A stretch of 64,000 nucleotides of DNA from positions 1,948,001 to 2,012,000 of the forward strand of contig JAUCEF010000003.1 in the NCBI GenBank assembly GCA_033558025.1, given 5' to 3'. Below are positions 7,621 through 21,118 of the stretch, piece by piece. This stretch comes from Phytophthora sp. 'mugwort'. Taxonomy: Eukaryota > Oomycota > Peronosporomycetes > Peronosporales > Peronosporaceae. The notes under the pieces were generated by a model. That model had not been told where the DNA came from and did no database searches. It worked only from the letters and a program-made list of their open reading frames with translations. A program made the translations under genes and the position numbers. How positions within the stretch are numbered: position 1 is the first letter of the stretch; every line of letters begins with the position of its first letter.

Positions 7621-9575
7621 CTATGGCGTCGCGAGCTTGGCTAAAAATTGTCTGCTGATGCTCGAGGAATGAAGTTGCTTGCCGCTGATTCGGAGATGGA
7701 CGTGGGATGACGCAGTCTGCCCATTGACCGAGGTTCGTAGCCTAAATCCGCCATGAATGGTGACATCCCGATTGACTCGTGGTTCCGTGAATTGTAGGCA
7801 AATCCGGCAAGAGGCAGCAACTCGTCCCATTCACTCTGATATGGGTTCACAAAGTGGCGGAGTATCCAGATATCACCTTATTGGTGACCTCCGACTGTCT
7901 ATCGGTGGAGGGTTTAAATGCTGTACTGAGGTTGAGCCTGGCACTTTGAAGGTCCATGCTGTTTTGACACAGGCCAGAAGTAAACTTTGCGTCACGATCG
8001 TAGACAATAGAAATAGGCAACCCTTGGAGACGCCGACAAAAATCCCGGAAAGGTTTTGCCGTCTCGCGAGTTGTTGCTTTCGATGTCGTGGGCAGGAAGT
8101 GGGCTGTATTAGTAAGCTGGTCCACAATAGCGAGAATTGCATCGACACTCGTGTCCGTCTGGCAAGCTCGTCATCAATTCCATGCCGGTCCAGCGCTGCT
8201 CGGGGACTTCCAAAGGGTGAAGATGCCCAGTTGGTTTGCCGCGAATGTGTTAATTACGCTGGCGAGCTCACATGTCTCGACATACGAGCGAATGAACTTC
8301 ACCATACCAGGCCAGTCGTACTTAAATGCCACTAGAAGATGTGTCTTGGCCTGCCCAGGGTGTCTGCGAGTCGGCGTATCGTGCTCCTCGTATATGATAG
8401 TGTTTCTCAGCGAGGTTTCGGCCGGAACACACACACGGGCTGGACCCCAGGCCGAATCCGGAAGAAAAATAGCCCATCCGAGAGCACGAAACGTTGGTAT
8501 TTTCGCGGACGATTTGATTCAGTCGTGAGCAAACTCCATATTGGCTCAGAATATTTGTCAGTGGAATAAAGACGACTGCATTCCGCTGTGATATCGACCG
8601 GCGCTGAAGTAGAGTGGGCAAATAGCGCTTCTTCGTCTGCAGGTTCTTGATGAGTGAGAGACTTCAACAAAGCCGAAAAACCAATTGCTCGACTGGTTAC
8701 GTCGTTCCAGCCGGATTATGCGAGATCGTGTCAGCCATCATGTCTGTAGCCCCCGCGACCCACTTGAACAGCGGTAGAAAAAGTGCGAGCTCGTTAAGCC
8801 ATCGAGCCAGTCTTTGAGAGCACGTCTGCTGCTGCAAAATGCCCTCAATAGTGCGGTGGTCGGTATTTATGAAAAGTGGCCTGTCGATCCGATAGATCTT
8901 CCACGTTCGCGCCGCGTTTAGCGCAGCTAACAACTCGTTCTCGCGAGTAGAATAAATGGGCTCTTCTGCTCGAGAAAGCTTGTCCGTTGAAGGCAGTGAT
9001 CTGCTTGCGGGCGGAATCATAGTACTATAGAAGAGATGCCCCCAATTGCGAAGTCAGAAGCATTCATGCTGACGTAAAATGGTTTCGAGAAATCTGGGTG
9101 CGCAAGGACAGGAGGGGAGGCTAGCTTACGCTTCAGCTCATCAAATGCCTTCTGCGCTTTCTCGCCGAAGGTGCGCGGCGGCTTCTGCCTTCGGTGAGTT
9201 AGATGACCGGAGCCATCAGGTCGCCGAAGCCATCGCAGAACTTCATAACATAGACGCAGGCTCCGAGGAAGGACTGCACTCTTGTTTTGTGTGAGGTGTC
9301 GGCCAGTCTTTTATCACTTGATCTTGCTTGGGTCTACCCGACGCCAACAATATTACCGATGCATGGGATTTCAGTAGCGCAAAATGTGCACTTCTCGATT
9401 TTTATGTGGAGGTGTTGCTCAGCGCACCTTGTTAGCACAAGACGCCGAGGTGGTCGTCGATCGAGTCGGAGCGGATAAACACGAATAGGTCGTAAAGTAT
9501 GTCTGGCAGGATGGAGGTCCGATAAAACCGCTTGAACGAGGCGATTGAAGGATGACGGACTGCTTGAAATGCCCA
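7621..9575 (-). mobile_element. Gypsy retrotransposon fragment A (RT, RNase H and integrase), degenerate
   Basis: Reading right to left on the minus strand: the end of the reverse transcriptase with SSFNRLVQAVLSDL near 9540 and HLHIKIEKCTFC near 9390; an RNase H region with YSTRENELLAALNA near 8940 and FINTDHRTI near 8860; the integrase zinc region with HPGQAKTHLL near 8365 and YVETCEL near 8280; and the integrase core with IVYDRDAKFTSG near 8000, STAFKPSTD near 7930 and WDELLPLAGFAYNSR near 7820. It stops at AYNSR...MSPFMADLGYEPRS near 7740. Gag, protease and the RT N-terminus are absent, and the frame shifts repeatedly. The catalytic core motifs are recognisable, but the copy is dead. No LTR pair was found. 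Confidence 0.85.
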
Positions 9576-9641: not shown

Positions 9642-10212
9642 GAGTCAATTCTGTCGCATGCATTACATGTATAATACTGTGCATGTAGATGAAAAGTGGT
9701 TTAATATCTACAAGGGAGGCACTAAGTACTATTTGACGGCACCTGAGCAGCTGCACTACTGCATACGTCAATGAACGTTATAACAAGAAATCATGTTTTA
9801 GCTGCTGTAGCTCGTCCACGCTACGATTTTCATCTCAGGCAGTACTTCGACGGCAAGTTAGGGATTGACCTCTTGTTGAAGAAACAACCGCGCAGCGCAG
9901 CTCGGCCAATCGACCGAAAGGCGCTGTCGCCATAAAAATCATCTCTATGGCGCGGCAACTTTATCGCAAGCTGCTGGCGGAGAAGGCCTTTCCCGCTATT
10001 CGGGACAAGCTGCCAGGTAACCTATTCTAGTGCTCTGATATTGCAGTTGACTAACACTATTCTGTTGTGTTATTATACTCTTCGAAAGGCAATGCTGTGT
10101 ATGTCCAGCAGGATAACGCCGGCCCTCATGTGCGCGAAGATGACGACGAAATGGAAGAAGCAGGCAAGGCAGGTGGGTGGGAAATCAAGATGCGGTGCCA
10201 GCCGCCTAGGTC
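9642..10212 (+). pseudogene. Mariner-like transposase II, 5' half (left of an inversion breakpoint)
   Basis: The plus strand reads MYNTVHVDEKWF near 9666 (first catalytic Asp), AAVARPRYDF near 9805, QYFDGKLG near 9840 and MARQLYRKLL near 9950. A GT-AG intron of 73 nt (10017-10089) lies before GNAVYVQQDNAGPH near 10090-10130, which keeps the second Asp. MRCQPPRS near 10190-10213 is the last mariner residue group. The expected next block (DLNVPDFG...) is missing here and is found on the opposite strand at 18524. Frame changes near 9765 and 9925 show decay. It differs in sequence from the mariner at 2940, so it is a separate copy or family. The N-terminal DNA-binding region is absent. Confidence 0.82.
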
Positions 10213-12462
10213 TCAACTGTGCAACTGGAACGGTATCATGCACCAGCGGACTGTGCCGTACACCCCTCAACAAAATGCGGTGGCGGAACGCATAAACCGT
10301 ACCATCATGGAGAAGGCACGCAGTATGTTGCACTACAAGGGTGTGTCAACGCAGTGGTAGGCGGAGGCTGTGAGTACAACAGTATACTTGACCAACCGTT
10401 CCACGAACACGACGAACTCGACGTGACACCGTACGAGTTTGGCTTCAAGGTGAAACCTCGGATGGGTCATCTGCGCATATTTGGATCTTAGGGGTACGCT
10501 CACATCGACGACGTGAAGAGGACGAAGCTTGAACCCAAAAGCTTCAGGTGCATGTTCCTCGGGTATGCTGAGAACGTCGAAGGGTACCGCGTGTTTGACT
10601 TGGACGCTTCAAAGATCAAGGAATCACGGTCGGTACGGTTGGACGAGTGTGAAGTGGACGGTATATATGATACACTTATGCGGAGCAAGGAACGGTCATC
10701 CGTGTCACGAAGGACGATGTAGCAGTGAAACCCATGCGAGTGGAGCGTCAGCATGTCCCGGATGAGCCGATGCACGAGGTGAAGGAGCCCGTCCAAGACG
10801 TCGAGATGGACGAGGTGGAACCGGAGCCAGAAGTGCAACTACCCCAGCTACCGCCCCCGGAACCGTCCGCTTCTACCAGGCTAGCGTTGGCACCCGCCAT
10901 CCCCGTGCGCGCAGGCGATGGCTAGCGGTGAAGCTGCTGCATGGCACGATGCGATAGGTGCTGAGTTGATATCGCATGAGCGGAACGGTACGTGGACACT
11001 GGTTCCACGTGGAACGGATAGGCGTCCTATTGGCTGTCGTTGGATCTTCGCGAAGAAACGTGATGAGCACGGTCGGGTGGTTCGCTATAAGGCACGGTTG
11101 GTTGCGAAGGGCTTCGAACAGAAGTACGGTGTGGACTTCTTCGAGACGTTCCCCTGTGGCGAACATGAATTCGATTCGGGTCGTACTGGCGGTATGCGTT
11201 GTCGACGCATATGTTATGGAACAGTTGGATGTTGACACAGTTTCCTCAATAGTGACCTGACGGACCGCGTCTACACGGAGATTCCGTATGGGATCGAGAA
11301 CGCTGGTAACCAAGTATGTCGACTCAACAAGGCAATCTACGGGTTGAAACAGGGTACAAATGCATGGAACAAGACCATACATCGCGTGTTCTTGGGGAAC
11401 GGCTTCAGAGTTGCGTAGCAGATCAGTGCGTCTACATGAAGCGTTTCCGGAACGGTTTCGTGTACGTGTGCCGGTACGTCGACAATATGATCATCACGGC
11501 CAAGACAAGTGGTGAATTCGTGACGTGAAAGACGCTCTCAAGGCTGCATTCAAGATGAAGGAGGTGGATCCTGCCAAGTTCATCTTGGGCATGATTGATC
11601 GCGACAGGACTGCCGCAACGCTCCTGATTAAGCAGACTCGATACATCGACGACGTGGCAGAACGGTTTGGCTAGCAGAACGCAAAGGCTGTGGACAACCC
11701 ATGTGCAGCTAACCTGAAGCTGTCTAAGGCACAGTCGCCTGGAACGGATGCAAATCGTGCTGAGATGCGATCGAGACCGTACCGTTCCCTCATCGGCTGC
11801 CTTCTCTACATCACGACGTGTACGCGCCCGGATGTGGCCTACGTGGTAACGCAGCTATCGCGAGTTTTGGAGAACCCCGGACTACAACATTGGCGAGCTG
11901 CAATTCGGGTACTGCGCTACCTGAAGACGACACGTGAGTTCGGGATTGTGTACCAAGGTGGGCTGCGAGGACGTCACGGTGGAAGCGTACACGGACGCTG
12001 ATTGGGGTAGCAACATCGACGACTGGCGTTTCGTGTCAGGCGTGCTGGTGATGATTGGGAACACTCCAATGGTGTTCAAGTCGAAGTTCCAGAGAACGGT
12101 TGTGCTGAGCACTGCGGAAGCTGAGTATATGGCGTAGACCCTGTGCACTCAAGAGGTGCTATGGACGTGGGCCATGCTCATGGACATAGGTCACGGGCAA
12201 GTGGGAGGCACGCAGGTCTGGGAAGCCAACCAAGATGCTATTGCACTGGCAAGCAACGCTGTGTATCTATCATGCGCGAAGCAAGCATGTTGACATACGT
12301 CATCACTTCATCCGCGAAAACGTCGAACAAGGAACGGTCAATATCGACTACATCGACACGAAGCGTCAGATTGCGGACATGCTGACGAAGGCGCTGGGCA
12401 CCAAGCCGTTGGCGTACATGAGAGACCCAACTGGTGTCAAGACCAAGGTTGCCGTCCCGTAG
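10213..12462 (+). mobile_element. Copia retrotransposon I, 3' half (integrase end, RT and RNase H)
   Basis: The sequence starts abruptly in integrase with GIMHQRTVPYTPQQNAVAER near 10230, which contains the third catalytic residue (E of AER). The GAG-pol linker VFDLDASK lies near 10590. The reverse transcriptase spans 10918-11640, with GCRWIFAKK near 11035, RYKARLVAKGF near 11085 and YVDNMIITAK near 11480, where the usual YVDD is changed to YVDN. The RNase H part has YRSLIGCLLYITTCTRPD near 11780, TDADWGS near 11992, VLSTAEAEYMA near 12105 and SKHVDIRHHFIRE near 12290, and ends with ADMLTKAL near 12375 and a TAG at 12460-12462. Several stops and shifts occur (for example 10361, 10489 and 11235). 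The missing 5' half lies inverted at 18520-20426. The purine tract GTGAGTGGGGG (12465-12475) precedes the LTR. Confidence 0.9.
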
Positions 12463-12475
12463 CGGTGAGTGGGGG

Positions 12476-12736
12476 TGTTGAAGTGGTACCGCACATGCAC
12501 GGTTCGCTAACACATGTGGACCGAGGGAACGGTTCATCCCGAACCGTTCCCGGATTGGTTGATCACTCTTGGGTGGTTCGGAGGACCCAAAACTGGTGTA
12601 TGCACAAGCGCACGCATGAAGATAACAAGGAAGCCAACACGGAGTAGGCATTTAGGGAGACTTAACGGACAGGGTTAACCGTTCTGATCTTCTTACTTCG
12701 GCATTTGACTATAACAACGCAAGCTCCATCTCAATA
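12476..12736 (+). repeat. Copia I 3' LTR (261 bp)
   Basis: It begins TGTTGAAGTGG directly after the polypurine tract and ends at TCAATA (12731-12736), where the partner LTR has TCAACA. It matches the inverted LTR at 20166-20426 over its whole length with about 13 differences counted by eye (about 95%). It contains the palindromic pair GGAACGGTTC/GAACCGTTCC. Confidence 0.92.
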
Positions 12737-12741
12737 ACAAC
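12737..12741 (+). repeat. Target-site duplication of Copia I, 3' side
   Basis: ACAAC directly outside the 3' LTR. Reading the element's own strand, the same five bases lie outside the 5' LTR (GTTGT at 20427-20431 on plus). Confidence 0.85.
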
Positions 12742-13304
12742 CTCCAAAGCGCTGTCTCTATGAATCAGTCGGGGTATGGACAGACGCACATAGACTAATT
12801 CGTTCAAAAGTTGCTTATTCCTCAGTCATCTTTCCAAGAAAAAATCAACGCGCGATACACAATGAGTGACACCCGTACGGCGTATGCTAAATGCCCGGGT
12901 TTTATCGTATATACTAATTACATGCCTACTTTGTCACACTTGCTATTTCTACTATCCATCACTACCGAATTATTACTCCATAGTCCTCTGAACTCGATAG
13001 ATATTTCCGGCCGCTACAACGCTGCTGATCGACATCTACTCGCAACTTCTTAATTGATGCTGATGTGCTCAATGCCTGGTCGGTTTAATGAGGGTAAATA
13101 ATTTTTTTATTGCAAACCGGCAGCAAATGAACTAAGACGATTCTACTGAAAAGGGTTTCATCTGACTAAACAGTGAGGTTCCGCTTTTTTTAATGCGCCC
13201 CACCAACTAACCATCATACCGCCTAACTGCGTCCTCTACATCGCTGCTTTAAAATTCCTCCTCATCTTCGGTATCCGAAATTACGGCGCGAGACCATACC
13301 GAGA
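12742..13304. other. Intergenic, nothing recognised
   Basis: AT-rich. No coding or repeat signal apart from short homopolymer runs. The upstream part of the MULE gene may reach back into it (near 13265 the plus strand already reads acidic codons). Confidence 0.4.
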
Positions 13305-14739
13305 GTGTGGAAGAGGCGAAAGCGATATGGACAGGCTGGCAATCAGGCAACCACAAAGTTCGGCATGTCGGCCATCGACATCTGGAAGCAAGTCCACACA
13401 GTATTCTACTCCGAAAATGACGATCGAGTTGTCAAAGGTCGTACTGAGTGGGAACAAGTCGTCACAGAGAAGCGGAAGTACTTCGGGGGTGGATTGTATG
13501 GTATAGTGGAAGTGCAGTCACTATCAATGGTGACGCGAACCAAGGTGTTATTTTTTCAGTTCCACTTGGAGAAGAAGTCAAAGAGAAAGCCGAACCGTTT
13601 TTTTCGGATGGACACACCCAGCTGTAATGGAAGTTCTCGCAGCGCATAGCGTCACGCTATTTGTTGATGGAACGTTCAGGTGTGTTCCGAATGGCTTTTG
13701 GCAGTGCGTTGTGGTAATGACAGAAGACCGAGCACGTTGCTTGTTTGTGCCAGTATTTACGTGCTATGCAGTAACAGCAGCGGAGAAACGTGCTGGGAAC
13801 GCTAGATCAAACGATCAAGAGCACCGATAGCAACATGCATCCGGCCGAAGTCGTTTGCGATTCCAAACTTGGTTCTAATTAAAGCTGTACAAGGCCAATT
13901 TCGTAACGCAGAGGTTATTGGTTGCCTCTTTCATTTAAATCAAGCACTGATACGGTGGATGAAGAAGCTCTGCATTCTCGACTGGCAAGCGAAGGTCGCA
14001 ATGGCAAAGAGTGTGGCTGATATGCTAACGGTCATTGAGCCCGATAAAGTGGAAGTAGCTGGAATGACATGGGCAAAGGCGGAGGTTAAGGCAAGGTGCG
14101 CTCGACTTGATTATCACGGCTCTAAGACGAAGTGGAAGTCATTTTGGTCGTACTTCAAAAGGACGTGGTTGGGCGCTACTCAATGCTCGAATAAAATGTT
14201 AACGGCTTGGAGGGAACGTTGGTTGCGCGCACCAATAATTCCCATTGAACGTATCAACAGGGAGCTCAAACGCAGCTTTCAAGATATACCCAGACATGCC
14301 TACATTCGTGCAAACTATTCTCGATATTTCGGTCGACTAGGTCCGCAAGCAGATGTACACCACGATCAATCTCCGCAGAAAAGCTCAGCAGGTTATCAAG
14401 CTTCGAACTGACTGCAGCCGTCGACTTAGCGAACGTAGACACGACCGATAGCGACAGTGAATCATCCGTAGACGGCGGAGATTCTGACAGCGGTAACTTG
14501 GACATCAACCCTGACCTGTCGGACTCCGACGAGTCTGATGAAAGGTGCCACAGCGAGGGCGACGAGCACGATGAGGAAGACGACAATACTCTCTGCGACC
14601 TGGCTTTTGAATTTGAAGGATTCGTCAACGTTGATGACTCCACGGACGGTAGGTTATTCTTCGTGTTTGCTGAGCGTGTGAGATGTACTGACTCGTTGTG
14701 TGCAATGTAGCGGACTTCACGCAGGCGCCTGTCGTGTAG
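13305..14739 (+). pseudogene. MULE (Mutator-like) transposase I, degenerate
   Basis: The MULE layout is clear: SVTLFVDGTFRCVPNGFW near 13650-13705 (first Asp), EVVCDF near 13850 (second Asp), GCLFHLNQAL near 13920 (the conserved C..H), CARLDYHGSKTKW near 14100, SYFKRTWLG near 14150, and PIERINRELKRSF near 14240 (the E helix). The C-terminus is very acidic (DLSDSDESDERCHSEGDEHD near 14515). A GT-AG intron of 62 nt (14649-14710) lets the frame run on to DFTQAPVV and a TAG at 14737. Frame shifts occur near 13575, 13830 and 14330. It lacks a visible SWIM finger, unlike the second MULE at 59.4-61.7 kb. It lies inside the inverted segment, so its present strand is the reverse of the ancestral one. 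Confidence 0.8.
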
Positions 14740-15018
14740 ATGCCGTTCACATCAAGCTTTCATGGGCAATATTTCCAATTTCCATAGCTAACACTACCAA
14801 GTAGATGTTGCTTGAATACATGCGACCCACTTTAGGTCGGGCTTTTATCATGGTCGGGCTTTTCGGTCTGAAAAGCTATTAAACCTGAAATCATGTCCGG
14901 CCCGAACACGACATTAAAAGCAGCTAATCAGCCCCCCCCCCCAACCGTTCAAATGCTCCTGGCTCGCTTCCAGGACTACCATAAACATAACCCATAAGGC
15001 CCGGTACATATTCCATTA

Positions 15019-15320
15019 TTAGTCGCCTCGACGCGGTCTCTTGGTCAATACAAAGGTAACAACTAAGAAAACTCCAGAGACTCCACACCCTATATCATCC
15101 AAAGTAGGGCGCCGCCTATGGCCCACAGAAGCTCTCCCCAGAACCTCGCGGTGGTCAGCCAGCATCTGATGATATGCCGGGAACTCTATGTCCTTGTACG
15201 TTATCAAACGAAAAATGGTCAGCTCGCTGGCCCGGTCAGATACGCACCATGCGGTCATATTTTCTCTTGCCTATGCCGCTTCGGGGGTGGCTCCGTACAA
15301 CCTAGTCCACAATCTAAACC
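15019..15320 (-). pseudogene. Fragment of an unknown protein with a C-terminal hydrophobic segment
   Basis: The minus strand reads WFRLWTRLYGATPEAA, a stop at about 15273, then an open run of 79 codons ending at 15019. That run contains FRLITYKDIEFPAYHQML, DDIGCGVSG and a hydrophobic stretch GVFLVVTFVLT before a basic tail. The amino-acid texture (aromatic, tripartite, with a terminal membrane-like segment) looks like real coding sequence that has decayed. I do not recognise the family. Similar texture occurs in the minus-strand remnant at 32835-33612. Confidence 0.35.
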
Positions 15321-15540
15321 ATTTGATCTTTCCGCCAATCCACCTATGGCATCAAGATTTCAGATCACACTGTATTGGCCGAGTAACGGTCGTCATCATA
15401 CATGACAACAACATTGTCAAAATTTGTCAAAAGTTGATGTGACCTCGACACAACCGGTCGCAACGTCGATACCTCGACCTTCTGCCAGCCCCACTTCGCA
15501 GGTTCCCTAGATACTCGTTAAGTCAATATGAACACTAGAT

Positions 15541-16890
15541 GTCCAAATCCAAGGCGTCGCTAGCGGCCAAGACCAGTACGGTCGTCGACCTGTCTTCGCG
15601 CTCGCCTCGACGAGAAGAGCGAGAACAATTACGAAGGCTGTCGACTTCGCACCTAAGTCGCTATCTGGGAGCGCATGCGCCCCCAGCTAGCAGTGAATCG
15701 ACCGTCCGTGTGATGTAAGGCCTCGACAACATCGCCCCGGCGGTGATGCTTGAAGACGCTGTCAACGTACCTACAGAACGCAAAAGAACGATGCTGGACA
15801 TGGCTACAGACAGGCACCAGTCCATGGCCTCTTCTCAGAGAAGCGCTTCACCAATGCGAACCTGCAGTTGGACCCACGCGCGCATTTTAACCGTGCGAGC
15901 ACTCCCCGCCAAGACACAAAGTACGTCGAAGAGGAAGCTCGCTCTCCGGACGTTCAGCTTCGACCCCTCTCCAGACCATCAGAGATCGAGCAAGGCCTCC
16001 CTCGCTTGGAAAAGATCAATGTCGACCAAGGCAAGGCTACGTCCCGCCTCGCATTTCCTTGGGGTAGGTGGCGCGCCTCGTACCGCACGTTCATGGACCA
16101 AAATCTCTATCTGCTCCACCGGCTCTTCGTAGTGCAGCTCCAGCGCGTGTGCGCTCTAAACTACGCAGGTAGCAGAAGCCTAACGCGATCCAGACCCGTC
16201 TCAAGTTCAGAAGCTACAACATCGAGGTACCGATACGTTTCGGTTTGAGAACGCGATTCACGACACGGCCATGTGGTTCGGAAGCATGGTCAATCACGCT
16301 ACCGGCGCCAAAACATAGGCGTCTTCGGGACAGCCACACAACGACCTTGTTACTCTCTATCACCGAGAAAAGACTCTATACGAACGCGTTATTCGACGCT
16401 CGCTTTATTCGTCCCGAGTGTTATACTTTCCTCTCTAAGCAATGCATGCTCTAGACCTATCGAGGATCGCTCATATTCATATTTCTCTTGAGCGGCGCTC
16501 TCGGCGTGAGGTAAGGTAAGCCACCCCGGCCCTTACTGGGTCTGCCACAAGACTGCGAAGTCATGAAACCAGTTGCGAGACGATAAATCACTGCGGGCCA
16601 CACAGAATCGAGCCGGCTAACCTGTTGCTTACCAACAAGGTCATCAACACCGACCTTGAGAAACGGTTTAGGGCTCCGAACGATGATTCCGACTTCGAGA
16701 AGTCTGTGAGTACACCGTTTTACCACGATCTCCATCAATTCCCGCCATGCTCACCTCCAAAGACAAGCGCAAAGTTACATCTTCGCCTCACTGGCTTAGA
16801 CGACGGATCGCTTGAAGCTCATGCCAACGACGAATATAAGGACGACAACAATGAAAACCTTGCTTTTTTCAGTGCAGGAACCAGGTGACG
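15541..16890 (+). pseudogene. Unknown protein, serine/arginine-rich N-terminus, decayed
   Basis: An ATG at 15541 opens a serine-rich, charged N-terminus (MSKSKASLAAKTSTVVDLSS) with a stop near 15717. Two overlapping frames continue it: 15743-16132 and, better in composition, 15868-16248 with NLQLDPRAHFN, RQDTKYVEEEARSPD, WRASYRTFMDQNLYLLHRLF and ALNYAGSRSL. Later pieces are ITEKRLYTNALFDARFIR near 16355-16415 and LTNKVINTDLEKRFRAPNDD near 16625-16690. The pieces read as one protein of about 400 residues with frame shifts. It could be the gag or structural protein of an uncharacterised element, because it sits among transposons, but no zinc knuckle, protease or polymerase is visible. Function unknown. 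Confidence 0.35.
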
Positions 16891-17974
16891 ACGAATAGCC
16901 CCGCGACGCGAATAACCATGTCGTTGCAGCCGAATAACCACGCCTGGGAGTCGGCCTCCACCGCCTAAGTTGTCCTGCCTCATCCCGTACTAGTCGTCCA
17001 TCCAGCCCTCGATTCCTCTTTTGTTTAACACGTCGATGTGACAGGCTCAGTCATTGTTTCAGAAAGATTTTCGTTTCTTGTTCCCGTTCGTTCGAGAGTT
17101 CTTCCACTTTAGATATATCCTTAATGCAAATGCAAACTTTCACGTCTCACAACCTTCCCATCAATAGGTTATTTAAAAGTCAATCCGTTATATCGTCCCT
17201 GTCGCCAAGACGCAACAAGCGTCACTAAGCCATTATCGGGTCGCCGTCCTCCACGCGAGCGTTGGTATCCGCCAGCCTCGCATTTCTCCAGAATTCACGT
17301 AGACGACGTTTCTTCTTTTCCACTTACTGGAAAGCCATTACTAACGCAGCTCAATCGCATCTTGGATAGCTAGAAAATATTAAAGCAAATGAACACGTCT
17401 AATCAACAAGCCGTTTGTCACTTCGTAACGAGAGGTCATTTCCACGCCTCTAACCGTCAGGAATGGGTTCAACGGAAAGGCCCGTCACGCACATGCGCCT
17501 ACGGCGCCTTAATTCACTTCACGTTCTGTTGTTTGTCTATAAAGTGCTCGAGGCCAAGCCACCCTGTCCCACCAGTGATAACGGGACGCTCGTAGGAATT
17601 TCATGTATTGACCCCCTCCCGCTCTCGTGGCCGTCAACATAACCAGCGCCTTCCTCTCCGAGATTATCTTTCTCACACATGGATTCGCGAGCGCTCTCAC
17701 CGGGCTGTGGCCGCCCACTTTTGGAACGGGATCCCTCCACCCTCGGTTCATTCCGGACTACTTCTCTGGCCCACGCCAAAATGACGATTTTAACTTACCG
17801 ACGATAACGGCTCAGCAACGACTCGTCAAGCATATATAAAGTCAGCGCGGTATAGCTCTTGACGGAGCCTGATTTTCTAGTATGTTTAGTTTCCGTGCAA
17901 GTAATGTTTTGAGAGAAAGAGGGTCACTCAAAATCGACGCGTTCGCTGGCACATTAGCTTTTTTTGTCGTAATG
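16891..17974. other. Non-coding, C/T-rich; nothing recognised
   Basis: Pyrimidine-rich plus strand with several 70-80-codon frames on both strands that look accidental. It may be the untranslated or LTR part of the unknown element to its left, but no TG...CA repeat pair was found. Confidence 0.3.
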
Positions 17975-18036
17975 AAGTCATTTTTTAGCGATAATCCTTC
18001 GCGTTTTAGGCGAAGGATTATCGCTAAAAATGACTT
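17975..18036. repeat. Near-perfect hairpin, 27-bp arms, 7-nt loop
   Basis: The left arm (17975-18002) and right arm (18010-18036) are reverse complements except for one extra T; the loop is GTTTTAG. It is far too long and perfect for chance. It is not next to a gene end, so a terminator role is unlikely. Confidence 0.9.
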
Positions 18037-18302
18037 ATCCGTATAATTTGAAGCCCATGGATGCTGCGCAAAGCACCAGAACGGAGTGGAAGGCTTTCGA
18101 TTAGTCGATTAAATGATGAGGTTATTGCAAACTTTTGGCAGTTAGCTATGAATAAACCAATACACTCAAGATGCGTTTTAGTTATAATTTTAGCGATCCG
18201 AAACCAATGAATTAAAACTACAAGAAAAATTGCTGTACCCCTTCGTTACCGCTTCCTGTGAGACTTGCACAGACATCGACAGCTGACAATTGAAACAACA
18301 TG

Positions 18303-18524
18303 TTATCCGACACGTGGCAGCTGGAAGTCATTGCCGCCGTCGTTCAGTAGGATGGCCTCTATCACCTTTTAAAGGGTGCCAAGACACATGTTAAGTGTCT
18401 CCCACCGGACCTCTTCAAAAGCCTCCTGTATTGCTTGGATGTGGCCAGGGGTGTCGTACGTAGCCTTGCGGTACTGTAGAGCCTGGATAGAAGCAAAATA
18501 ACCAAAATCAGGTACGTTGAGATC
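18303..18524 (-). pseudogene. Mariner-like transposase II, 3' end (right of the inversion breakpoint)
   Basis: On the minus strand the Copia integrase frame passes directly into DLNVPDFGYFASIQAL near 18520-18475, then GHIQAIQEAFEEV near 18430 and NDFQLPRVG, and stops at 18303-18305. This is the C-terminal block of a mariner transposase and begins exactly where the plus-strand mariner at 9642-10212 breaks off. One in-frame stop lies near 18370. Confidence 0.85.
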
Positions 18525-20165
18525 CGCTACCTTCTTGTTCACGTATTCCGTGCCGTTGTCCGACCATAGACAATTTAACTGTTCGCCCCACTGGTTCTCG
18601 TAAAGCGCCTTGAACTCGACAACTTGGCAGCGACATCACTCTTGGCCTTCAGGAAGTAGGCTACCACGAACCGTGAATAGTCGTCTACGAACATTAGGAT
18701 GTACTGAGCGCCGCCCTTGGAGACCGTTCGCATAGGTCCCATCACATCCGTGTGCACTAGTTCCAGCACGCGGGATGCCTTGCTCAGTGAGCGCGATGGG
18801 AACGGTATCGCCGTGTGCTTCCCCTTCATGCATCCACCGCACACGTTCTGACACCACGGTTCACGGTTGCATACCCGTTGCTGCACCCTGTGTCTTGGCT
18901 AGACCGTTCTCGCTGGGTGTCCCATGCGAGCGTGCCAAAGCTCCCACTCACTATCAGCCCCTGAGTACTGCACATACCGTGCCTCGTCCTGTTGGCAGTC
19001 GTGCACGAACGCCTTGCCGACCTTCTTGCCCAATGCAATAGCGCTGACCGTGCCCCAGATGACGCATGAAGAACGCTGAAACTCCACGTTCAGGTCACGC
19101 TCGGCAAGCTTCTCCACAAACAGTAACCGTCTGTCAAGTCCAGGGATGTGCAGCACCTCCTTCATCGTGATCCGGATAATGTCCAGACCGGTCAATCGCA
19201 CCGTTCCACGGCAAGTCACGCGCAACTTCTTTCCGTCCGCAATCGTCACGTCAACCCCCAGTCCAGCGTCTCGTACTTGAAGAGATCGCTGCGGTGAGGA
19301 GACATATGCGCCGCCGCACCGCCGTCAATAAGCCATCCAGCAGACCGTTCCTCACACACTGCAAATACGGCGTCATCCGTTCTGACACCGTTCCGTTTCG
19401 GGCAGTCCCGCTTCATGTGTCCAGTCTGGTTACACCTGAAGCACTTGCCCATAAAGCCACCGCCGTTTTTCCGCGGACCGTTCCCTTTGCGCCGTTGCCC
19501 CGACCACCCTTGAACCGCCTAGCATTCACCTTGAACGCGCATTCCGCGGTCTCCTTCTTCTGCAACCGTTCGTGTTCGTTCAACAGCTTCTCCTTCACGT
19601 CATTGAGGGTGATGTCCTTGGCGTTCTCCACGATTGACGCAATCAGCTCATACTCCGACGGAAGGCTGCTCAGCAGCATCACAAGCTGCCGTGATTCGTC
19701 GACTTGCTCCCCAAGCGTCTGGGGTCCGATGACGAGCTAGTCTAAAGCGTCCAGATGCTTCGCCATATTCGAACCGTTCTCCATCTTGAACTCGTGCAAC
19801 TTCCGCGTCATCGTGACACGGTTATGGAGCGTGGTACGGTTGTAGAATTCGCGAAGCGTATTCCACGTTTGCGTGGCACGGGTGGCAGACCGTATCTTGG
19901 TCTGGTATTGCAGCTCAACGCCTTGAGCAATGATGCCGAGTGCCTTGGCGTCGTTCACCAACCATGCCTCGGTGATCTCGTTCTCCGGCTTGAGGACCTC
20001 CACGTGCGCCAGCAGTCCCTTCCGTGCGAGGGTCATGCGCAAATTATACTCCCAGTAGAAGTAGTTCCCACTACCCAGGAGGACTTCGGCTCTCCTGATA
20101 GTCGTCATGGCTTGAGCGTTCTTGACAGGCCGTTCCGGGTCCGGTTTTTTGTGCGGCTGGTAACC
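18520..20165 (-). mobile_element. Copia retrotransposon I, 5' half (gag, protease and integrase start)
   Basis: Minus strand, from the LTR inward: a UBN2-type gag from ATG at 20108 (LLGSGNYFYWEYNLRMTLAR, then YNRTTLHNRV near 19830); a gag tail with MLLSSLPSEYE near 19670; a zinc knuckle CFRCNQTGHMKRDC (CCHC) near 19440; a protease with GWLIDGGAAAHMSPH near 19330, where the usual DSGA is changed to DGGA; a GAG-pre-integrase region with ELWHARMGHPA near 18930; the integrase zinc and core with LVHTDVMGP near 18755 and FVDDYSRF near 18690; and LWSDNGTEYVNKKVADL near 18570-18520 with the second catalytic Asp. There the frame switches into mariner. The rest of the element lies at 10213-12736 on the plus strand. 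Stops near 19740 and elsewhere make it inactive. Confidence 0.92.
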
Positions 20166-20426
20166 TGTTGAGATGGAGCTTGCGTTGTTATAGGCAAATG
20201 CCGAAATAAGAAGATCAGAACGGCTAACCCTGTCCGTTAAGTCTCCCTAAATGCCTACTCCGTGTTGGCTTCCTTGTTATCTTCATGCGTGCGCTTGTGT
20301 ATACACCAGTTTTGGGTCCTCCGAACCACCCAAGAGTGATCAACCAATTTGGGAACGGTTCGTGATGAACCGTTCCCTCGGTCCACATATGCTAGCGAAC
20401 CGTGCAAGAGCGGTGCCACTTCAACA
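20166..20426 (-). repeat. Copia I 5' LTR (261 bp)
   Basis: On the minus strand it runs from TGTTGAAGTGG (ending at 20426) to CTCAACA (20166), so it is bounded by TGTTGA/TCAACA. It has the same length as the LTR at 12476-12736 and about 95% identity by eye. The next minus-strand bases (GGTTACCAGCC...) should be the primer binding site, but the tRNA was not identified. Confidence 0.92.
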
Positions 20427-20431
20427 GTTGT
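20427..20431 (-). repeat. Target-site duplication of Copia I, 5' side
   Basis: GTTGT on plus, ACAAC on the element's strand; matches the bases outside the 3' LTR at 12737-12741. Confidence 0.85.
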
Positions 20432-21118
20432 CTATATTTGACGGATTACCTTATCTAAGTGAACATTTATATAGATGCAGGCTTCAGATGTCGTTGCTAT
20501 ACGACGCTAAGTGAAATGTAGTATTGTAAATTCCAGCCAAACTTGCGATGCTGCTCGGCTCATCAACAGTGGGTTGAATAGGCCAATACAATTCTCAAGT
20601 TGTATGAGAATCAACCAAGCCCATTTCATATGATACGGCCAGGTTTCGCCTAAGTCTGATTACGTACTTAGTGGTGACCGTTGACAACTCAAGTGCGTTT
20701 GGGTTTCGGTCGATTTGCGGCTTGATCTGGGCGCATCGATTCAACCATCAACCGCGGAAACTTCAACTAGAACGCACAATATGATCCAGTCTGTTAAACT
20801 CGTACGAAGTTAAGCTTAACTAGTACGAGCAGAAATAGCCAGATTATAAACATCTGGAGTGGTGAAACATGTGTGTACTTATTACATCTAATTGATGATC
20901 AATGGAGGTCGACAAGGTCGCTAACGGCTACCTTAGCTAGAGGTTTAACGTGCTGAATCATGCCCTTCCACACCTTTTTCCGTTTTCTTTGACAATCACG
21001 CCGCTTGCGCGCTCCAGTTTCGTCTGAGGTAGTGAAACCGGCTCAAAGCGCGACTGACAGCCTTGCCTCGTCGCGCTGAGACTTTCTTGATTTCTTCACA
21101 CTTGAACTTCTTGGCAAG
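20432..21118. other. Intergenic; nothing recognised
   Basis: No gene seen. A minus-strand frame at 20996-21265 is basic in composition but lies opposite the Tc1-like remnant and resembles nothing known. Confidence 0.35.

What the first reader, a model, noticed from the sequence alone, without database searches (positions are those of the whole stretch)
10205..20431. One inversion swapped the halves of a mariner transposase and a Copia element
At 10212 a plus-strand mariner transposase breaks off after QPPRS and passes into the middle of Copia integrase. At 18520 a minus-strand Copia integrase breaks off after KKVADL and passes in frame into the missing mariner end (DLNVPDFG). The Copia halves complement each other, and the integrase catalytic triad is divided between them (Asp at 18560, Glu at 10270). 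The two LTRs are both 261 bp, and the outer flanks carry the same target duplication ACAAC (12737-12741 and, inverted, 20427-20431). Before the event, mariner (plus) and Copia (minus) lay intact apart from decay; inverting 10213-18520 gives today's order. The 7-mer TCTCAAC is present at both junctions in inverted orientation (10211-10217; 18516-18522), and GATCT at 18520-18524 would fit an in-frame exchange, so short homology between unrelated transposons may have mediated it.
Basis: seen in the sequence. Interest (0 to 1): 0.92.

Follow-up and report, generated by a model that had tools for sequence, protein, structure and literature searches.

The report
Small inversion broke two dead transposons
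An 8.3-kilobase stretch of DNA in what is probably a water-mould genome was flipped around, cutting two decayed mobile elements and swapping their halves; the sequence supports this well, and ordinary repair of broken DNA explains it.

Summary
At 10214/10215 (+) a decayed mariner/Tc1-like transposase passes into the 3' half of a Copia pol. At 18526/18525 (-) a Copia 5' half passes into the missing mariner end. Elsewhere in this genome, 5 of 5 mariner copies found by the right half also hold the left half beside it. In 4 of 4 mapped Copia copies the two halves abut. The window LTRs are each other's best match (95%) and carry the same 5-bp target duplication, ACAAC. One inversion of 10215-18525 explains this. 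No reads and no unflipped relative could be examined.

The proposed cause, exchange through TCTCAAC or GATCT, is not supported. 9 of 9 Copia relatives lack the 7-mer near the break. J2 retains mariner bases upstream of it. Two double-strand breaks joined with 0-1 bp of homology and about 3 nt lost fit best, that is, end joining. The mariner was also not intact: about 700 bp of its 5' end is absent. This is a well-resolved but ordinary small inversion.

The parts
9644..10214 (+). Middle part of a decayed mariner/Tc1-like transposase element; its own 5' ~700 bp is missing upstream
   Evidence: Matches 4 close genomic copies at 82-85%; these extend 704-713 bp further 5'
10214..10215 (+). Junction J1: mariner CCTAGGTCTC | Copia AACTGTGCAAC
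   Evidence: Base-level comparison with mariner and Copia relatives
10215..12475 (+). 3' half of a Copia pol (end of integrase, RT, RNase H region), with stops and frameshifts
   Evidence: Pfam RVT_2 E=1e-14 on 10885-11232; the RNase H label is recalled from motifs
12476..12736 (+). 3' LTR of the Copia
   Evidence: 95% to the other window LTR, the best of the 42 other matches listed (40 of 63 candidates scored)
12737..12741 (+). Target-site duplication ACAAC
10215..18525 (.). Inverted segment, about 8,311 bp
   Evidence: Reciprocal junctions; 12735-13300 inside it has a single copy in the genome
17759..18525 (-). 3' part of the mariner-like element, ending in its right terminal repeat (17759-17789) and TA
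18525..18526 (-). Junction J2: Copia GTAG[C] | mariner GGATCTCAAC, C shared
   Evidence: Zero mismatches to one relative of each kind at this break
18526..20165 (-). 5' half of the Copia: gag, zinc knuckle, Pol_BBD region, first part of integrase
   Evidence: Pfam Retrotran_gag_2 E=5e-24, zf-CCHC E=8e-8, Pol_BBD E=1e-7; rve E=2e-5 below its curated cut-off; 87-96% to 4 genomic copies
20166..20426 (-). 5' LTR of the Copia
20427..20431 (-). Target-site duplication ACAAC (reads GTTGT on +)

Best explanation
A Copia LTR retrotransposon had inserted on the minus strand (TSD ACAAC) to the right of a mariner-like element on the plus strand. Later two double-strand breaks, one in the mariner transposase gene and one in the Copia integrase gene, released the ~8.3-kb piece between them. 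It was rejoined backwards by end joining with 0-1 bp of homology and about 3 nt lost. No function need be assumed; the in-frame fusions are incidental and lie in decayed genes. Shown: reciprocal junctions, halves contiguous in relatives, LTR pair, TSD, base-level breakpoints, single copy of the interior stretch tested. Inferred: the repair pathway and the order of events.
For: The J1 query splits into Copia hits (from position 163-179) and mariner hits (to 158-165), and J2 splits the same way; in both lists only the window matches throughout (40 of 85 and 40 of 52 candidates scored). 5 of 5 non-self copies found by the mariner right half also hold the left half adjacent (in the C5 copy only the last ~97 of 613 bases of the left half). 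In 4 of 4 Copia copies mapped, the two halves abut with 1-4 bp of alignment overlap. 9 of 9 Copia loci aligned read on as Copia across the break. Mariner relatives read TCTC|CGGATCTCAAC and Copia relatives GTAGC|TG|AAGTGTGC, with variants; J1 = TCTC|AACTGTGC and J2 = GTAG[C]GGATCTCAAC, with best break models at 3 and 0 mismatches. The LTRs are each other's best match by score (95%; next 92%, and one partial copy 93% over 194 bp). TSD 5 of 5 bases; two single LTRs of the family also show perfect 5-bp duplications (TATCC on C9, GTGTT on C16). One P. rubi protein spans the mariner break and 5 of 5 Copia integrase proteins span the Copia break.
Against: No read data and no assembly of a relative could be examined, so the unflipped order was not seen. 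The mariner halves rank the four close relatives differently (left: C7 and C16 best; right: a C6 copy best), so similarity alone does not prove one copy. Of the five other two-LTR Copia copies whose outer flanks I read (C2 twice, C7, C10, C13), none has a perfect TSD at its own two ends. Of the 9 Copia loci, one (C7:10299873) has no left-half match listed; of the left-half matches, C1:2463637 and C8:2656645 have no right-half match listed. The lists are capped.
Confidence: 0.9

Rival explanations
1. The inversion occurred by recombination through the short homology TCTCAAC (or GATCT) shared by mariner and Copia.
For: The 7-mer is at both junctions in opposite orientation; 3 of 4 close mariner relatives carry it near the break; a distant mariner copy (C5, 70%) lacks 8 nt at the same place, so such a gap is possible.
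Against: 0 of 9 Copia relatives have TCTCAAC within 40 bp of the break; most read GCTGAAGTG there. J2 keeps CGGATCTCAAC, i.e. mariner DNA upstream of the 7-mer. By my reckoning the model needs an 8-nt loss in mariner and a 5-nt gain in Copia before the event; the end-joining model needs neither.
Confidence: 0.05
2. Assembly artefact: the segment was placed backwards or two contig ends were misjoined.
For: The locus is repeat-rich, and inverted LTRs of 95% identity lie at 12476-12736 and 20166-20426, the kind of repeat that can mislead an assembler; reads were not available.
Against: The breaks are not in the LTRs but at two sites sharing 0-1 bp, and they are complementary to within ~3 nt in both elements; a flip between the LTRs would have moved the TSD, which is in the place expected without one. 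No N in the window.
Confidence: 0.04
3. Two or more independent rearrangements (for example template switching during replication, or separate truncated insertions) made the two junctions.
For: The region is otherwise rearranged: the mariner is cut at 9644, downstream of a stretch coding for an RNase H-like domain.
Against: The complement is within about 3 nt in both elements, with no second copy of the interior stretch tested (12735-13300).
Confidence: 0.02

Closest known systems
Transposable-element-mediated rearrangements of the non-homologous class (TEMR-NHE) in human genomes, PMC9675761 (passages seen)
   Same: Breakpoints inside transposable elements; the paper gives a median microhomology of 1 bp for TEMR-NHE; its inversions are of kilobase size
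   Different: Here the two elements are of unrelated classes (DNA transposon and LTR retrotransposon) and the host is probably an oomycete; the passages seen give counts for Alu and LINE-1 elements
Ty1/Copia elements of Phytophthora, such as CoLT, PMC7082073 (passages seen)
   Same: Copia-type gag and pol domains and LTRs beginning TG
   Different: I did not compare the sequences, so whether this Copia is CoLT is untested
mariner/Tc1-like elements of Phytophthora (e.g. the P. rubi protein P0006)
   Same: 66% identity over 47% of the J1 frame, the mariner part; terminal repeats and TA in genomic relatives
   Different: The window copy lacks its 5' end, is split by the inversion and its gene is broken

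Membership tests
Simple reciprocal inversion | Two junctions that are complements of each other | tested here: met
   complementary within ~3 nt
Simple reciprocal inversion | No duplicated copy of the inverted segment | tested here: met
   12735-13300 has 1 hit, itself, in 86 Mb; the stretch 13301-17499 was not searched
Simple reciprocal inversion | Unflipped order seen in a relative | not testable with these tools
   states that this genome has no relatives held
End-joined (NHEJ-type) breakpoints | Little junction homology, small losses | tested here: met
   J1 0 bp, J2 1 bp, about 3 nt lost
Homology-mediated exchange at TCTCAAC | Both parents carry the 7-mer at the break | tested here: not met
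   Copia relatives 0 of 9; mariner relatives 3 of 4, but downstream of the J2 break
Single Copia insertion | Two LTRs more like each other than like other copies | tested here: met
   95%, against 92% for the next full-length match and 93% for one partial match (40 of 63 candidates scored)
Single Copia insertion | Matching 5-bp target-site duplication | tested here: met
   ACAAC/ACAAC; single LTRs on C9 and C16 also have 5-bp duplications
mariner/Tc1-like element | Inverted terminal repeats flanked by TA | tested here: met
   Both ends with TA in 2 of 4 relatives (L032, L033); L030 lacks TA at its left end and L031's right end was not reached by the alignment. In the window only the right end survives
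mariner/Tc1-like element | Match to a transposase family model | tested here: not met
   Pfam found no transposase model on the J1 and J2 frames at E<=0.1; naming rests on P0006, the terminal repeats and recalled motifs, so 'mariner/Tc1-like' is a likeness

The most novel reading that the evidence does not exclude
The inversion and the nearby conversion-like tract (18629-19606, 99.2% identical to a Copia copy about 67 kb away, against 93.5% and 84.5% in the adjoining stretches) were made by one repair event: a broken Copia end copied from the distant copy and was then end-joined to a break in the mariner. This would be a fossil of homology-directed and end-joining repair acting in one event. 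Against it, the tract stops 103 bp short of the break.
Probability: 0.03. Interest if true: 0.4.

Novelty: new member of a known kind. Interest (0 to 1): 0.15.

Why it matters
It is a base-resolved example of an inversion with both ends in unrelated decayed transposons and almost no homology, so repeats can host breakpoints without mediating recombination. It also warns annotators: the two open frames (101 and 88 codons) that cross the junctions look like transposon fusions but are debris. It could help to order events at this locus if relatives are compared.

Tried and rejected
Homology-driven exchange by the 7-mer: rejected. Flip between the inverted LTRs: rejected, because the TSD positions fit no net LTR flip. 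Nested insertion: rejected, since the halves lie in opposite orientation. Empty-site test: both Copia flanks were searched in the genome; 12735-13300 is single-copy, and 20427-21000 matches other places only from about 216 bp outward, so no contiguous empty copy was found. Conversion tract bounded by the breakpoint (which would date the inversion): not supported, because the tract stops 103 bp short of it. Chimeric protein in another assembly: none among 6 hits of 7 candidates; P0004 aligned over 90% of the frame, but the part over the mariner half is a weak extension of a Copia integrase match. Literature: three searches listed nothing on this locus by title and abstract start; the library holds open-licence PMC papers only, and only passages of two papers were seen.

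Full report
Setting. The window is C3:1948001-2012000 of an 86.26-Mb genome in 154 contigs. Of the six protein relatives of the J1 frame, the two that carry a name come from Peronospora and Phytophthora, so the host is probably an oomycete; I did not identify it further.

The observation. A DNA query across J1 (10050-10450) splits: Copia-type copies match from position 163-179 on, and mariner-type copies match up to position 158-165 (40 of 85 candidates scored). In that list only the window itself matches the whole. The query across J2 (18720 to 18290, minus strand) splits likewise, Copia up to position 187-198 and mariner from 195-200 on (40 of 52 scored). The mariner right half alone finds five other copies, and in 5 of 5 the left half, or in the distant C5 copy its last ~97 bases, lies directly beside it. 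Other places found by the left half (C8, a second place on C5, C18, C12, C4, C1) are weaker partial matches that do not reach the break. For the Copia, four copies were mapped in both halves (C2, C7, C5, C3), and in 4 of 4 the halves abut at the break with 1-4 bp of alignment overlap. Between a few Copia places appear in only one list (C7:10299873; C1:2463637; C8:2656645); the lists are capped and I did not pursue them.

One Copia insertion. The two LTRs, now inverted, differ at 12 of 259 aligned sites (K2P 0.048) and are each other's best match by score, 95% against 92% for the next and 93% for one partial copy. They are flanked by ACAAC in the positions expected if 10215-18525 was flipped after insertion. 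Two single LTRs elsewhere (C9, C16) are flanked by perfect 5-bp duplications, so 5 bp is probably the family's rule. Five other two-LTR copies whose flanks I read (C2 twice, C7, C10, C13) have no perfect TSD of their own; in the two C2 copies the flanks look exchanged (see noticed items).

The mariner. Four relatives are about 2.0 kb long. Terminal repeats of about 30 bp with TA are seen at both ends in two of them; L030 lacks TA at its left end and L031's right end was not reached. The window copy begins at 9644, 704-713 bp inside that element, downstream of a minus-strand frame with an RT_RNaseH domain (8700-9020; 'Ty3-like' would be my label), and ends at its right terminal repeat at 17759. 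So it was truncated at some time, before or after the inversion. Pfam gave no transposase match on the junction frames; the name rests on the P. rubi relative, the ends and recalled motifs.

Breakpoints. Mariner relatives read CCTAGATCTCCGGATCTCAACGTAC and Copia relatives GTAGCTGAAGTGTGCAACC, with small variants. J1 is CCTAGGTCTC|AACTGTGCAAC and J2 is GTAG[C]GGATCTCAACGTAC. Scored against one relative of each kind, the best break in J1 has 3 mismatches in total and the best in J2 has none. The mariner is preserved across the two junctions with no more than one base in doubt. The Copia has lost TG or CTG. J1 shows no homology and J2 one base. The 7-mer TCTCAAC at J1 is thus a composite, at J2 it is plain mariner sequence, and none of 9 Copia relatives has it within 40 bp. 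The 7-mer occurs 9 times in the window, as expected by chance.

Mechanism. Two double-strand breaks and end joining fit best. Among human transposon-mediated rearrangements of the non-homologous class the median junction homology is 1 bp (PMC9675761, passages seen). One interior stretch of the inverted segment (12735-13300) is single-copy, so the event was conservative there. That both fusions are in frame has about a one-in-three chance once the exchange is reciprocal and in the same sense (my reasoning), and both frames are short (101 and 88 codons).

What is not shown. No reads, isolates or sister species could be examined. The age of the inversion is bounded only by the Copia insertion (LTR divergence). 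The similarity ranking of mariner relatives differs between the halves, so their unity rests on the base-level complement and not on phylogeny.

Verdict.

Noticed in passing
window 18629-19606 (Copia 5' half) and G000:C3 about 2,034,280-2,035,260 (L017): A ~978-bp tract is 99.2% identical (8 differences of 978) to a Copia copy about 67 kb away on the same contig, against 93.5% and 84.5% in the adjoining stretches; 2000 shuffles of the differences gave at least 21 in any 970-site window, against 8 observed. It looks like ectopic gene conversion younger than the insertion (LTR divergence 4.8%).
   Followed up: partly
G000:C2:1099503-1104124 (+) and about C2:1144612-1149228 (-); L072, L068, L076, L077: Two Copia copies in opposite orientation, 99.7% identical over the 3,240 bp compared, seem to have exchanged flanks: GATGC lies 5' of one and 3' of the other, and CATTC/TATTC lie at the other two ends. 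This would fit an inversion of the ~40 kb between them by recombination of the two copies.
   Followed up: partly
L022 (G000:C5:3919810-3920616): The C5 Copia copy has an internal piece matching window 10328-10890 in reverse orientation, flanked by forward pieces: perhaps another small inversion inside the same family.
   Followed up: no
window 17975-18036: A 62-bp stretch inside the mariner 3' part matches its own opposite strand at 89%, so it could form a hairpin; the C7 mariner relative does not align across 18009-18163.
   Followed up: no
window 9643/9644: Another abrupt join: the mariner is cut off here, and upstream lies a minus-strand frame with an RT_RNaseH domain (8700-9020); no match to the missing mariner 5' end was listed in the window.
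   Followed up: no
window 20521-20781: Dispersed repeat of ~260 bp with about 40 further places listed (40 of 100 candidates scored); one of them lies about 0.3 kb outside the left end of the C7 mariner copy.
   Followed up: no
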